NCBI GenBank assembly: GCA_009841225.1
Contig: VXMF01000009.1
Coordinates: 62,001 to 126,000, forward strand
DNA: 64,000 nucleotides
Source of the DNA: Terriglobia bacterium
GTDB lineage: Bacteria > Acidobacteriota > Terriglobia > Bryobacterales > UBA6623
Reading direction: 5' to 3'
Positions 39,782 to 46,376 of the stretch are shown piece after piece. The notes below the pieces were generated by a model. The model worked only from the letters and a program-made list of their open reading frames with translations. It searched no databases and had not been told where the DNA came from. Numbering within the stretch: the stretch's first letter is position 1; each line of letters starts with the position of its first letter. Position numbers and translations under genes: made by a program.

Positions 39782-39787
39782 TATGAT
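39782..39787 (+). promoter_or_regulatory. putative -10 element of the S41-like gene
   Basis: TATGAT (5 of 6) ends 10 nt before the ATG at 39798 and runs through the alternative ATG at 39783, which favours the later start. Confidence 0.35.
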
Positions 39788-39797
39788 GAAGCATCCC

Positions 39798-41024
39798 ATG
39801 AGTTCCCGACTCAAACTCAGTGTGATCTGCAGTTCCTGCCTGATCTCGATCCTGCTGGTCGTGGGAGCGGTGCTCGGCAAGAGCGAGCAGCAGGAAGGGG
39901 CATATCGTCCGCTGGCCGTGTACACCGAGATCCTCGCTCGCATCAAGAGCGACTATGTCGAAGAGCCCGATATCGCCAAAGTCACGCAGGGTGCGCTGCA
40001 CGGATTGGTCGAATATCTCGACGCTGCATCCAGCTATCTCTCCAAGGAGCAATTCGACGCCTATCAAGAGGCGTCGCGCAATTCCGATAGGGGCAGCGGC
40101 CTTGCGAGCGGAATGGTCGTGCGCAAGCAGGGAGCTTACACGAGCGTGCTGTCCGTCGTGCCCGGCTCGCCGGCCGACAAAGCGGGGATCCGGGCCGACG
40201 ACTTGCTGGACGCCATCGATGACGTTAGCACGCGGGTCATGCCCCCGGCCTACCTCCAGGCGATGCTGAGCGGTGCGGCAGGCACCGGAGTCAAGGTCAT
40301 GGTACGCCCCGCATCCGACTACGAGTCGCCGGTAGAGCACACCTTGGTACGAGCGGATCCCAGCCTGCCCGAAGTCGCCTTCCGCATGCTGGAAGACCGG
40401 ATCGGCTACGTGGATGCGGACTTCTTGGCCGACAGCCACGTCGGCCAGGTCTCTTCGGCCATACAGTGCTTGGAAGCTGACGGCGCCGAGAAGCTCATCC
40501 TCGACCTGCGCGGCAACGCGATGGGAAGCCCGGATGCCGGCATCGCCCTGGCAGACCTGCTCCTGACCGGCGGTACGATCACCAAACTGGACGGGCAGAA
40601 TTACTCGGCAAAGCTGTTCAACGCCTCTGCCGATTCAGCTGTGACCGAGCTTCCGGTCGTTGTAATCGTGGACCGCCCGACCTCGGGTGGGGCGGAGATC
40701 GCAGCGGCCGCCATCCAGCAGAATGATCGCGGCGAGGTGGTCGGGGAAGCGACCTCGGGGTTGGCCGCAGTCCAAGAGACTATCGGCCTAGACGACGGAG
40801 CAGCCCTGATCCTGTCCGTCGCGAACTACCACGGCCCGGGCGGCGAGGCTATCCACAACGAGGGCGTCGAGCCGGATAGCGCTGTCTCCCAACGGGACTT
40901 GCGGCGCTACCGCGAGGTGAGGCATCGCTTGTTCGACACACCGGAGGCGCGGCAAAGGGCGGAAGAAGAAGTGGGCGACCCCTTTCTCAAGCAAGCCATC
41001 GAAGCCCTGACCGGCAAGGCCTGA
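39798..41024 (+). CDS. S41/C-terminal-processing-peptidase homologue with degenerate active site
   Basis: 408 aa from ATG 39798 (ATG 39783 would add 5 residues). A signal anchor (about 5-27) is followed by the N-terminal CTP helices, a PDZ domain (about 95-170, "SVVPGSPADKAGIRADDLLDAID"-type) and the S41 core. In E. coli Prc the core reads VDRFSASASE with nucleophile Ser, and GKG with general-base Lys 25 residues later. Here the equivalents are "VDRPTSGGAE" (291-300), giving Gly297 at the Ser site, and "GEATSGLAAVQ" (316-326), giving Leu322 at the Lys site, exactly 25 apart. Without both residues it is probably not a peptidase. It may act as a regulator or scaffold. Single gene with no operon partner. 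Confidence 0.85.
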   Translation: MSSRLKLSVICSSCLISILLVVGAVLGKSEQQEGAYRPLAVYTEILARIKSDYVEEPDIAKVTQGALHGLVEYLDAASSYLSKEQFDAYQEASRNSDRGSGLASGMVVRKQGAYTSVLSVVPGSPADKAGIRADDLLDAIDDVSTRVMPPAYLQAMLSGAAGTGVKVMVRPASDYESPVEHTLVRADPSLPEVAFRMLEDRIGYVDADFLADSHVGQVSSAIQCLEADGAEKLILDLRGNAMGSPDAGIALADLLLTGGTITKLDGQNYSAKLFNASADSAVTELPVVVIVDRPTSGGAEIAAAAIQQNDRGEVVGEATSGLAAVQETIGLDDGAALILSVANYHGPGGEAIHNEGVEPDSAVSQRDLRRYREVRHRLFDTPEARQRAEEEVGDPFLKQAIEALTGKA

Positions 41025-42885: not shown

Positions 42886-44640
42886 CTACCCACCCGCGAG
42901 CGGGTGCGGCAGGAGCGGCGGCCGGGGGATGTTGCCGGAGGGCCGCCTGACGGTGACGTCCTCGAACAACAGCGACGGCACCACCAACGACACCACGACC
43001 GGCCGTCTCACCGCCGCGAATCCAAGCGCCGAGCCGCTTCCTGCCAGAAACCGTGCCGTATGCACGGCGCTGGCTTCCGACGCGGCCACGATGTCGCGGA
43101 AGTCGGACTCTTGCATGCCGGCCAGCACGACCTTGCCGACCATTTCCTCGCGGCCGTCTGCGAACAGCTTGTATGCGACCGCTCCCGCAATCTCCGAGCG
43201 TTCGCCCGAGCGAGTCGCAGAACCCGGCCCGCGTTCTCGGGAGATCCGGCCGGCGGCGTTGCCAACGCGGCGGACGATGATGCCGAATTCCAGTTCCCGT
43301 TCTTCCACCAAGCTGAGCAGTTCGCTGCGCAACTCGTCCGGCGCCAACCCCTGCCGCGGGACCACGAACAGGTTCGACGGCGCCGGTCCGCCTCCGCGCC
43401 GATGTCCGTTGCTGTCCGGAACGCCCTGTACCGGATTCCGCGTCGAGAGCAGGGTCTTGAGAATCCCGCGCTGGATGAGAGCGGTCTGCTGGGCGGCAAC
43501 GCCCTCGTCGTCGATGGCATAGCCGCCAAGCAGGGCGACCTGTTCGTGCTCCTCGCGAGCTGGATCGTCCATCACGTCGAGAAATCGCGGCAAGACGCGC
43601 GAGCCGAGCTTGTCCACGAACGGATTGCCGGCCCGCTCCATGGCACGGGCGAGGCGGGAGTCATCCGCCATCGGGACACGGACCGCGAGCAGGCGCGGGA
43701 CGAGCACCTGCCTGACCACCTCGGCTGCCGCCTGCCCTTCGAACAGAACCGGCCCGGTGTAGCGGTCCAAGACCGGCGCGGCGCGAAGTTGCTGCAAACG
43801 CTCGGCTAGGTCGGCGGCCAGTGCGAGCAACTCGGCTCGGTCGGGCAGCCGTTCCCAAACACGGGCATGCACCGAGGCCGAATCCTCGAACGTCGTTCCA
43901 TCATCGCCCTGGGTTCCCGCCGAGATCCGCACGGAAGCGCTGGGGTCGAGGCGGGTGAACGATGTACCCTCGCTGTTGACATACGAAACGCGGCGGCTGG
44001 CGGCCTCGACCTCAACTTCCGAGACGGAGACGTGCGGCAGGCCGCGGAAACCCGCGGAGACTTCCAGTGCCAATGCCTCCAGGGCCGATACGCTGATTTC
44101 CGCCAGCGGTCGCGCATCGTCGTGCCGGTGCGGCTCTTGAACGCTAAAGTCGGGCACCTGCTCGACCTGCGTCGCGTTCTGCAGAACGGCGCGTTTCTTG
44201 GAAAGATGGTCCAGCGCCTGCTTGTAGGCGCTGTCAGTTGCCAGCCAGATCTTGCGCCTCAGCTCGCTGTAGTCGTCCTCGAGCGGCAGCGTAGTGGGAA
44301 ATCCCGCTCGCGAGAGCGCGGAGCCGAATTCGGGCCGCGTGAACAGATTGGTGTTGTCGAAGCTAGCCTCGCCCACGCGAACTTCGACCGACAGCAGGCG
44401 GCTGGCGCCCTCGCTGCGACCGACCGGAGCGCCGAGCGAGGCTGTTGCCCGGGCACTTGTCGTTTCGTGCACTTGGTAGGACACAAAATACGGCTTGCTC
44501 ATGTCACGCAGTTGCAACTCGGACATGGTGCGCTGCAGCTCGTCCCGCATCGCCCTCATCAGGACCGACTCTTGCGCGAGAGCGGGAGCCGTCGCGAGCA
44601 GGGCAAGCAGCGGCAGGATGAGCCGGGCCTGCGGCGTCAT
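42886..44640 (-). CDS. exported TldE/PmbA-like protein without zinc motif
   Basis: 584 aa. A signal peptide (about 1-22, ending ALAQ) is clear. The body shares the TldD/PmbA fold with the gene upstream: "VSYQVHETTSARATASLGA", "YVNSEGTSF", "YTGPVLFEGQAAAEVVRQVL". The position of HExxxH in TldD reads "AAAEVVRQ" here, so no zinc site is present, as in TldE/PmbA. The third TldD zinc ligand Cys is also missing. It overlaps the TldD-like gene by 4 bp (ATGA). Together they look like an exported version of the cytoplasmic TldD-TldE heterodimer, in which TldE helps hold the substrate channel. Confidence 0.88.
   Translation of the reverse strand: MTPQARLILPLLALLATAPALAQESVLMRAMRDELQRTMSELQLRDMSKPYFVSYQVHETTSARATASLGAPVGRSEGASRLLSVEVRVGEASFDNTNLFTRPEFGSALSRAGFPTTLPLEDDYSELRRKIWLATDSAYKQALDHLSKKRAVLQNATQVEQVPDFSVQEPHRHDDARPLAEISVSALEALALEVSAGFRGLPHVSVSEVEVEAASRRVSYVNSEGTSFTRLDPSASVRISAGTQGDDGTTFEDSASVHARVWERLPDRAELLALAADLAERLQQLRAAPVLDRYTGPVLFEGQAAAEVVRQVLVPRLLAVRVPMADDSRLARAMERAGNPFVDKLGSRVLPRFLDVMDDPAREEHEQVALLGGYAIDDEGVAAQQTALIQRGILKTLLSTRNPVQGVPDSNGHRRGGGPAPSNLFVVPRQGLAPDELRSELLSLVEERELEFGIIVRRVGNAAGRISRERGPGSATRSGERSEIAGAVAYKLFADGREEMVGKVVLAGMQESDFRDIVAASEASAVHTARFLAGSGSALGFAAVRRPVVVSLVVPSLLFEDVTVRRPSGNIPRPPLLPHPLAGG
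42891..42906. terminator. small hairpin between convergent genes
   Basis: CACCCG-CGAG-CGGGTG, a 6-bp stem with a tetraloop, lies 40 nt after the sugar transferase stop and inside the last codons of the TldE-like gene. No T-tract follows on either strand, so it is at best a weak or Rho-assisted terminator. Confidence 0.25.
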
Positions 44641-46376
44641 CGGACACCTCCGCGCTCAAGACTCTGCGGAGCGGGCCTTGAGTCGTCTGGCGGCGGTAGC
44701 AGCGGAAGCGGGACCTGCGACTTCGCCTTCTTCTGTACCTCGATCTGGGATACGAGGATCGCCGGGGACGCGGCCGAGACCGGCACGCCGCCCGACTCGG
44801 CACCGCAGGTGCCGTTGAATACCCCGACTTCGCCGCCCGCCGAGATGACCTTGCTGAAAGTAGTCAGCGGCGTGCCGATCAGGTCGACGCCGCGAACCAG
44901 TTCCTGTCGGCCATCGGCATAGATCCGATAGACCACGACGGGAGTGACATTGAAGGCATTTGGAACCGTGCGGCCGGTGAATGTGAACCCGCCCTGAACG
45001 TCTTCGAAGTACAGGCCGTAATCCTTGCCTTGCTCCTCGAGCAGAGCGATCAGTTCCTGCTTGAGTTCTTCTTCTGAACGCAGCTCGCTCACCTCAACGA
45101 AGAGATTGGACTGTCGCGAGACCGGGGCGAACCCGGCCTGCTTGCGCCCGTGACCGTTGGAGCGGCCAAAGCCCTTGATGGGCGTCCGTGACATCAGGAA
45201 CTGCTCCAAGACGCCGCTCTGGATCACCGGTACGCGCTGCGCCTTCACGCCTTGGTTGTCGTAGCGATACGCACCCGCCAAGTCCGTGGATCCCAGGCGA
45301 GTGACCGTAGGATCGAATATCACGGAGAACGCCTCCGGTAGCACAGTCTCCCCCAACATGCGTCCGAAGGTCTGGGCGTCTTGGTCCCGCTTCTGACGGT
45401 GGCCCTCGACCCTGTGACCCAGTATTTCGTGGAAGAAGACCCCGCTCGCCCTGCCGGAGAGAATCGCGGGACCGGTATACGGCTCGGCCAGCGGCGCGTT
45501 GCGGAGGCCGGCTAGATCGCGAATCATCCGCTCCACAGCATCGAGCACGGTCGCATCGTCCGGCAGTCCGCTGGGATCGAACGCGAAGAATGACTCGTAG
45601 CGAGGCAGTTCCATCCCGTCTTCGGCCTTGGTCAGCGCCGAAATCACCAGGCGCACGCGAGGCTCGGCCGTGCGAATCTTCGAGCCCTCGCTGTTGACAT
45701 ACCAGCGCGTCACCACCGATCCGCTAATCACGGCATCGGCGGAGTAGACGTGGGGCGCCTGCGCGAACGGTGCCGAGTAGCGCTTCAATCTGTCTTCCCA
45801 GGCCGCCAGATCCAGGTCGAACGAACGCAGGTCTTCGATCGACCGCTGTTCATCCTCGGCCGAGAAGTCCGCCAGGAGTTCTTCGTCGTGCACCGTGACC
45901 TGTACATTGGTTTTCACTTTGGTGAGCTGCTCCGTCGCTTCCCTGTACTTGCGGTCAGTCTGGAACCACAGCGTGCTGCGCAGCGCATCGATGTCCGCAA
46001 CAGGGGCCTCTACGCGTGAGAGGCGGAGCCGGCCGCCCCCGCCCCTGCCCCGGATCGGGCGGGTGTTGTCAAGGCTGTGGCTGCCGACCCTGAGATCAAT
46101 GTCGAGCAAGCGGCGCTCGCTATCGGAACGGCCCGCCAGCGCACCGAAAGACGCTCGCGCATACGAGGTGCGCTCCTCGGTGATCTCGTAGCTGAGGAAG
46201 TACAGCGGTGTGGGCTGACCTGACAGGGTCTCGACCGAGCGGTCAAGCTCCTGCTGCATCGCATCCAGGACAGCATCCGACGCGTGAAGTGGCCAACACG
46301 CAAGCAGCGCGAAGGCCGCCGCTGCGCCCAAGCGAAGCGCCCTCAGTGAAGGTGGTATCATTCCGCTCGCCATCAT
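44637..46376 (-). CDS. exported TldD-like zinc metalloprotease
   Basis: 579 aa from ATG 46376. A longer frame to 46574 is rejected: TAGAAT sits 7 nt before this ATG and a signal peptide (about 11-32, ending LHA) follows. The zinc motif is H316-E-I-L-G-H321, and the third ligand Cys lies in "GTCGAESGG" (C524), matching the H/H/C triad of TldD. Classical TldD/TldE cut unfolded peptides such as CcdA and mature microcin B17 in the cytoplasm. This pair carries signal peptides, so a periplasmic or outer-surface peptidase is predicted. Divergent from an exported sulfatase. Confidence 0.9.

What the first reader, a model, noticed from the sequence alone, without database searches (positions are those of the whole stretch)
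42886..46376. Exported TldD/TldE-like pair with one zinc-competent and one zinc-free partner
The upstream gene keeps H316-E-x-x-x-H321 and C524, the H/H/C zinc triad of TldD, while the downstream one lacks all of these and mirrors TldE. Both have signal peptides, unlike the classical cytoplasmic heterodimer. The 4-bp overlap and neighbouring exported sulfatase imply an extracytoplasmic peptidase that could work with surface glycan or peptide breakdown.
Basis: partly seen in the sequence, partly recalled or inferred. Interest (0 to 1): 0.55.

Follow-up and report, generated by a model that had tools for sequence, protein, structure and literature searches.

The report
Exported, separately evolved TldD/E-like peptidase pair
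Two overlapping genes make a pair of apparently secreted proteins built like the bacterial peptide-trimming enzyme TldD/E, one with a metal-binding active site and one without, and their family tree suggests that this working-plus-dead partnership evolved a second time, outside the cytoplasm.

Summary
Window 46376-42886(-) encodes overlapping proteins D (P0001, 579 aa; HEILGH 316-321, C524) and E (P0002, 584 aa; no such residues). Both start with signal-peptide-like sequences and are predicted to fold like E. coli TldD/E. Searches of the window's genome gave no other TldD/E-type gene. The pair is not simply TldD plus TldE relocated: exported D and E are sisters in trees (100/100), and grouping exported D with TldD is rejected (AU p 4.8e-10; N half 2.4e-7; C half 4e-4). 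The zinc-free partner thus seems to have arisen at least twice. Relatives lie in MAGs titled as eight phyla. D and E are usually adjacent (110 of 121); five natural D-E fusions lack the second signal peptide; three genomes keep both unlinked. This suggests a heterodimer in one extracytoplasmic compartment, most likely a metallopeptidase for unfolded peptides. Location, dimer and activity are inferred, not assayed. The sulfatase link is not conserved. Ten literature searches listed no paper on this exported branch.

The parts
44637..46376 (-). D subunit (P0001, 579 aa): exported TldD-like, zinc-competent
42886..44640 (-). E subunit (P0002, 584 aa): exported zinc-free partner
44637..44640 (-). 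4-bp overlap of D stop and E start
   Evidence: a start codon at this spacing exists in 49 of 110 D/E pairs
46278..46376 (-). signal-peptide-like N-terminus of D (residues 1-33, proposed cut HAS/D)
   Evidence: hydropathy rule; the cut site is my reading
44575..44640 (-). signal-peptide-like N-terminus of E (residues 1-22, proposed cut ALA/QE)
   Evidence: hydropathy rule; the cut site is my reading
45414..45431 (-). HEILGH (H316, E317, H321): two metal ligands and general base by analogy with TldD H262/E263/H267
   Evidence: PMC5810440 passages
44805..44807 (-). C524, third metal ligand by analogy with TldD C454
43696..43713 (-). E residues 310-315 (RQVLVP) at the position of HExxxH: ligands lost
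   Evidence: alignment; numbering counted by me
44640..44726 (-). proline-rich C-terminal tail of D (551-579), an exported-branch feature
42889..42945 (-). proline-rich C-terminal tail of E (566-584)

Best explanation
The two genes encode the subunits of an extracytoplasmic, metal-dependent peptidase that works like E. coli TldD/E but belongs to a separate branch. Each subunit is exported, more likely by the Sec than the Tat route. D and E pair into a hollow heterodimer. D holds a metal ion with H316, H321 and C524, with E317 as base, and cuts unfolded peptides or peptide tails that thread into the cavity. E completes the shell and the substrate path but has no active site. The branch duplicated its own ancestral TldD-like gene and lost the metal site in one copy, independently of the event that made TldE. 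Shown here: sequence, fold models, conservation, gene pairing, fusions, tree. Inferred: export, dimer, metal, peptidase activity, threading. The substrate is not identified; bulk trimming of unfolded periplasmic peptides is my best guess.
For: Fold: D model pLDDT 87.2, pTM 0.85, VIA Z 36.2 to TldD 5nj5_A over 440 residues, model range 33-551. E model pLDDT 87.1, pTM 0.86, Z 28.9 to TldD and 24.6 to TldE of E. coli. Active site. Export. Pairing: 110 of 121 non-fused D rows have an E core downstream. Five D-E fusions have a hydrophilic linker where E's signal peptide would be; the three whose N-terminus is held (L117, L141, L166) are not among the signal-rule failures. In three genomes D and E are both present but unlinked: G051, G324 (about 150 kb apart), G334. 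D/E distance matrices correlate, r 0.936 over 90 pairs. Purifying selection on both, dN/dS 0.09-0.23 against three relatives. Separate origin. Profile cross-scores, medians: exported E with exported D 315 bits, with cytoplasmic E 24; cytoplasmic E with cytoplasmic D 224, with exported E 22. The clamp-tip columns are filled 74% in exported E and 9% in TldE.
Against: No experiment. The signal peptides come from a simple hydropathy rule. The exported and cytoplasmic halves are joined by a long branch, and the AU test shares the model's pull. Exported E rows score about equally with cytoplasmic D and E profiles (22 of 35 prefer D; the window's E ties at 29.9), and Foldseek E-values for E slightly favour TldE over TldD, though VIA Z and TM-score favour TldD. 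The TldD clamp tether K456/D272 is not conserved: A526 and H326. The fold also contains N-deacetylases (title of a 2022 review seen in a reference list; paper not held). No E was found in G341 (its D matches only to model position 530 of 566), in G340 (D at a contig edge), or in G033 with its unpaired relative. In G325 and G342 D and E lie on different contigs but both at contig ends, so they may be ordinary adjacent pairs broken by assembly. The mirror-tree value has no species background removed. The loci are partly redundant.
Confidence: 0.72

Rival explanations
1. Same exported heterodimer, but it hydrolyses an amide bond in a non-peptide or modified substrate (such as an N-acyl group) rather than trimming peptides.
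For: The TldD/TldE family includes N-deacetylases (title of Vobruba et al. 2022 in a reference list) and lincosamide-cluster members LmbIH/LmbQ (passages). The residues tethering the clamp differ from TldD.
Against: The zinc triad, the general base and the brace Arg362 equivalent are kept in 35 of 35 exported D rows. No neighbour of any kind recurs widely.
Confidence: 0.13
2. D works alone or as a homodimer; E has drifted to another role.
For: BipI is a TldD-type protease described as self-sufficient (PMC12707348, passages). L086 is an unpaired relative, and G341 gave no E.
Against: Fusions and strong adjacency, three genomes that keep both although unlinked, purifying selection on E.
Confidence: 0.08
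3. Exported E is orthologous to TldE, and the tree is an artefact of long branches or of gene conversion between neighbouring D and E.
For: Long inner branch between the halves; adjacent genes can convert each other; Foldseek E-values for E slightly favour TldE; profile scores of exported E with cytoplasmic D and E are nearly equal.
Against: Both protein halves give the exported clade at 100/100 and reject the D clade. E keeps the clamp segment that TldE lacks. Exported E scores over ten times higher with exported D than with TldE (median 315 against 24 bits).
Confidence: 0.12
4. One reading: a surface enzyme working with the neighbouring sulfatase in glycan or glycopeptide breakdown.
For: Adjacent, divergently transcribed sulfatase in the window and in two near relatives; its start looks signal-like to my eye.
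Against: Sulfatase matches in 3 of 118 loci; the pair recurs in 116 loci, the next neighbour family in 15.
Confidence: 0.04

Closest known systems
E. coli TldD/TldE (TldD/PmbA; MEROPS M103), PDB 5NJ5 series
   Same: Fold over the mature chain, HExxxH plus remote Cys in one partner and none in the other, brace Arg362 equivalent kept, D/E pairing
   Different: Signal peptides; no PF01523 match; K456/D272 tether replaced (A526/H326); E keeps the clamp segment; proline-rich tails; separate D/E duplication; usually one two-gene unit, sometimes fused
PmbA/TldE structures (1VL4, 3QTD, 1VPB, 6J6A)
   Same: Fold of the zinc-free subunit, Z 23.1-25.6
   Different: E is not the sister of TldE in the tree; VIA Z and TM-score are higher for TldD chains
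BipI (biphenomycin TldD-type protease, PMC12707348, passages)
   Same: TldD-type metal motif
   Different: No TldE partner found near its cluster; part of a RiPP cluster; no export mentioned in the passages read
Leptospira exoproteome TldD (PMC5881292, passages)
   Same: TldD reported outside the cell
   Different: 49.9 kDa, the size of ordinary TldD; the paper puts around 60% of its proteins in the class without a signal sequence or with non-classical export. Not tested for membership of this branch

Membership tests
TldD/PmbA superfamily | C-terminal and central domains (PF19289, PF19290) above curated cut-off | tested here: met
   Both proteins
TldD/PmbA superfamily | TldD/E fold including the N-terminal domain | tested here: met
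   AF2 models; VIA Z 36.2 (D, model range 33-551) and 28.9 (E, 22-567)
TldD/PmbA superfamily | N-terminal Pfam domain PF01523 | tested here: not met
   No match listed for P0001 or P0002 nor anywhere in the genome; too diverged for the model although the predicted fold is kept
TldD (catalytic subunit) | HExxxH plus remote Cys | tested here: met
TldD (catalytic subunit) | Clamp tether Lys456 with Glu270/Asp272 | tested here: not met
   E270 equivalent kept in 35 of 35; Lys456 position is Ala in 34 of 35 exported D but Lys in 28 of 28 and 5 of 5 cytoplasmic D; Asp272 position His in 28 of 35
TldD (catalytic subunit) | NCBIfam equivalog cut-offs (NF008006, NF040952) | tested here: not met
   45.3 of 513 and 73.9 of 635 bits
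TldD (catalytic subunit) | Groups with TldD in a tree | tested here: not met
   AU p 4.8e-10; halves
TldE/PmbA (zinc-free subunit) | Lacks HExxxH and the Cys | tested here: met
TldE/PmbA (zinc-free subunit) | Clamp insertion absent | tested here: not met
   Clamp-tip columns filled 74% in exported E, 9% in TldE
TldE/PmbA (zinc-free subunit) | Groups with TldE in a tree | tested here: not met
   exported D and E form one side of the tree, 100/100
TldD/E heterodimer | No N-terminal signal sequence (cytoplasmic type) | tested here: not met
   Signal-like in 116 of 123 D and 107 of 111 E against 1 of 53 controls; a prediction, not an assay
TldD/E heterodimer | Physical heterodimer, metal binding, peptidase activity | not testable with these tools
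   Only indirect support: fusions and pairing

The most novel reading that the evidence does not exclude
Bacteria invented the 'one active, one dead subunit' TldD/E machine twice. The second version lies outside the cytoplasm in many phyla, may in some genomes be the only TldD/E-type enzyme, is sometimes a single fused chain, and uses a swapped clamp anchor (R322/R327/E527 in place of K456/D272) and conserved proline-rich tails, perhaps docking on the partner.
Probability: 0.6. Interest if true: 0.72.

Novelty: new variant of a known kind. Interest (0 to 1): 0.6.

Why it matters
TldD/E is described as a heterodimer that trims unfolded peptides; the cytoplasmic-type proteins checked here lack a signal sequence. 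A parallel, exported branch under several phylum names would be a little-noticed extracytoplasmic peptidase, lying outside the Pfam model for the N-terminal domain. A second, independent loss of the metal site in one partner makes a direct question testable: why does this hollow-shell enzyme repeatedly need a dead partner? Natural fusions give ready single-chain material for structure and assay.

Tried and rejected
Sulfatase/glycan context: rejected, not conserved. A shared neighbour as a clue to substrate: none recurs widely; LptF/G-like, NTP-transferase and similar neighbours are confined to a few loci (names are my reading of sequence starts, not searched). Tat export: 1 of 123 D and 3 of 111 E show a Tat-like motif, so Sec is more likely. 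Cytoplasmic twin in the own genome: none found. A mixed alignment of fusions with single D and E proteins (A4) has its invariant columns only in the D half of the fusion, which I took to mean that E rows were laid onto that half; I did not use it and did not fold a fused chain. My first cytoplasmic N-terminus control mis-oriented many loci and was replaced. A plasmid search for annotated relatives gave matches under 60% identity, the named ones TldD or TldD/PmbA-related (25 of 46 records listed). In the first tree some kept columns could be filled mainly by exported rows, so I repeated it with shared columns. I first counted five genomes with unlinked D and E; a check of contig ends reduced this to three.
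Full report
WHAT IS THERE. On the minus strand, window 46376-44637 encodes a 579-residue protein (D, P0001) and 44640-42886 a 584-residue protein (E, P0002); the ends overlap by 4 bp. D carries HEILGH from residue 316 and C524. Both match the central and C-terminal TldD/PmbA Pfam domains above cut-off, but neither matches the N-terminal one, PF01523. D and E are 31% identical over 527 columns; for E. coli TldD and TldE 18% is reported (PMC5810440, section read). The genome (5.74 Mb, completeness 98.55) gave no PF01523 match and no PF19289 or P0001-like match other than this pair. The nearest named relatives are MAGs titled Bryobacterales at 92-93% identity (L102, L103), and L103 shares all seven neighbour genes tested.

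FOLD AND ACTIVE SITE. The AlphaFold2 model of D (45-row alignment) has pLDDT 87.2 and pTM 0.85. It matches E. coli TldD over residues 33-551 (VIA Z 36.2, rmsd 3.3, 440 aligned), so the N-terminal domain keeps the fold although its Pfam model fails. The E model (43 rows; pLDDT 87.1, pTM 0.86) matches TldD at Z 28.9 and E. coli TldE at 24.6. Foldseek E-values slightly prefer TldE (8e-25 against 2e-22), while its TM-score prefers TldD (0.61 against 0.56). On a 125-row alignment thinned by me, the residues equivalent to TldD H262, E263, H267, C454, E270 and R362 are unchanged in 35 of 35 exported D. The clamp-tether residue K456 is Lys in 28 of 28 and 5 of 5 cytoplasmic D rows but Ala in 34 of 35 exported D. 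The D272 position is His in 28 of 35. In their place exported D has near-invariant R322, R327 and E527. A swapped salt bridge is my inference. Over all 126 D rows, 122 fill the ten scored columns and 119 show H, E, H, C. Two of the remaining three are fusions scored on the wrong half; the third, in L136, is degenerate.

EXPORT. With one hydropathy and cleavage rule, 116 of 123 D and 107 of 111 E are signal-like (3 of 126 D and 4 of 115 E rows were dropped because their N-terminus was not covered or not aligned). Of 53 cytoplasmic-type TldD/E, tested by hydropathy alone, 1 passes. Two of the seven D failures (L118, L163) begin at contig starts. Tat-like motifs are rare (1 of 123 and 3 of 111). 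SignalP was not available.

PAIRING. In the loci D lies upstream of E; the E rows without an upstream D are the unlinked L041, two at the start of tandem arrays (L131, L136), and L119, whose open frame merely starts early. Of 121 non-fused D rows, 110 have an E core downstream on the same strand within 1.5 kb, and in 49 of these 110 a start codon sits at the 4-bp-overlap spacing. Five open frames are D-E fusions: L117 and L118 (titled Gammaproteobacteria), L141 (unplaced bacterium), L163 (Acidobacteria), L166 (Bacteroidetes). In each, the place of E's signal peptide is taken by a short hydrophilic linker. The three with a visible N-terminus pass the signal rule. Where no E stands beside D, I searched nine genomes. 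Three hold an E clearly elsewhere: G051 and G334 on other contigs, G324 about 150 kb away. Two (G325, G342) hold D and E each at a contig end, so these may be adjacent pairs broken by assembly. One (G343) holds E in pieces. Three gave no E: G341, whose D is short at the C-terminus (model position 530 of 566); G340, where D is at a contig edge; and G033, whose single relative is the unpaired L086. Distances among 90 D/E pairs correlate at r 0.936 (permuted maximum 0.077; species background not removed). dN/dS is 0.09-0.18 for D and 0.13-0.23 for E against three relatives. Together these argue for a two-subunit enzyme acting in one compartment.

ORIGIN. A tree of 68 rows (18 exported D, 18 exported E, 14 cytoplasmic D, 14 cytoplasmic E and 4 of the HESCGH/HESVGH type, picked by me for diversity) puts exported D and E on one side and the rest on the other, 100/100. 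With 64 rows and only the 390 columns filled in at least 70% of each group, the result is the same. Group profiles agree: exported E scores 315 bits (median) with exported D and 24 with TldE; TldE scores 224 with TldD and 22 with exported E. Against this, exported E scores almost equally with cytoplasmic D and E profiles (22 of 35 favour D; the window's E ties). Exported E keeps the clamp-tip columns (74% filled) that TldE lacks (9%); the TldD clamp is residues 450-463 (PMC5810440). On this unrooted tree the zinc-free state needs at least two changes. An unpaired relative without a signal-like start (L086) branches near the base of the exported half, but on a long branch and with weak support. 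Gene conversion or long-branch pull remain possible.

DISTRIBUTION. In a sample of 297 genomes of the window's phylum, 46 have a strong relative (best E below 1e-70; my count from the listing, which scored at most four candidates a genome). Of these, 32 also have a PF01523 match and 14 do not (my count); G033's single match is marginal. The 80 kept loci are titled Acidobacteriota 29, Bacteroidota 16, Pseudomonadota 12, Ignavibacteriota 6, Gemmatimonadota 4, Planctomycetota 3, Chlorobiota 2, Caldifarciminota 1, and 7 unassigned; MAG titles were not verified. Of 44 genomes carrying such loci, 21 have PF01523. So the pair often coexists with the cytoplasmic enzyme and in some genomes may be the only one.

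CONTEXT. No neighbour is widely shared: the pair itself recurs in 116 loci, the next neighbour family in 15. Window neighbours are a divergent sulfatase, then PSCyt/PSD1 and DUF1501 genes, a bacterial sugar transferase, an S41 peptidase and a deoxynucleoside kinase. PSD1 and DUF1501 relatives lie beside the pair in L034, L035 and L103. The sulfatase hypothesis therefore falls.

MECHANISM. E. coli TldD/E is a hollow heterodimer proposed to trim unfolded peptides from the N-terminus, with the metal site in TldD only (PMC5810440, abstract, passages and one section; review PMC10885120, passages). By homology and kept residues, the window pair most likely does the same outside the cytoplasm. An exported-branch feature is a proline-rich tail on both subunits: at least 4 Pro in the last 30 residues in 99 of 116 D and 98 of 106 E, against 1 of 56 and 0 of 31 cytoplasmic D and E. 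The D tail is kept in front of the linker in the fusions, which would fit docking on the partner; this is speculation.

LITERATURE. The listings of ten searches of the open-access library named no paper on an exported TldD/E branch or on D-E fusions of it; I read passages in six of the papers. TldD was found in a Leptospira exoproteome, but at the size of ordinary TldD (PMC5881292), and TldD/PmbA entries appear in a Vibrio proteomics table (PMC12797937). Subscription journals are mostly not held, including the 2022 review of the family.

VERDICT.

Noticed in passing
L117 7644-11252, L118 2-3319, L141 713-4264, L163 1-3399, L166 7947-11453: Natural D-E fusions with the inner signal peptide replaced by a hydrophilic linker.
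   Followed up: yes
L131, L132, L136, L137, L148: Tandem arrays of two to four D/E pairs in MAGs titled Gammaproteobacteria or OMG group.
   Followed up: partly
L136 6175-8004: A D-like copy in such an array with the second His and the Cys replaced (N and S), apparently dead.
   Followed up: partly
L086 6268-7920 (G033): Unpaired TldD-like protein with HEAVGH, no signal-like start and no E found in the genome, near the base of the exported half of the tree (long branch).
   Followed up: partly
L034 and L035, downstream of E: PSD1 and DUF1501 genes follow E on the same strand in two related genomes; in the window they lie on the other side of the pair, beyond the sulfatase.
   Followed up: no
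L085 2273-4033 and L095 6432-8724: D (L085) and E (L095) are split over separate open frames, probably by a frameshift in the record or the gene; D in L095 runs into the contig end.
   Followed up: no
window 39783-41024: S41 (C-terminal processing type) peptidase with PDZ domain near the pair, transcribed on the opposite strand; its start looks signal-like to my eye.
   Followed up: no
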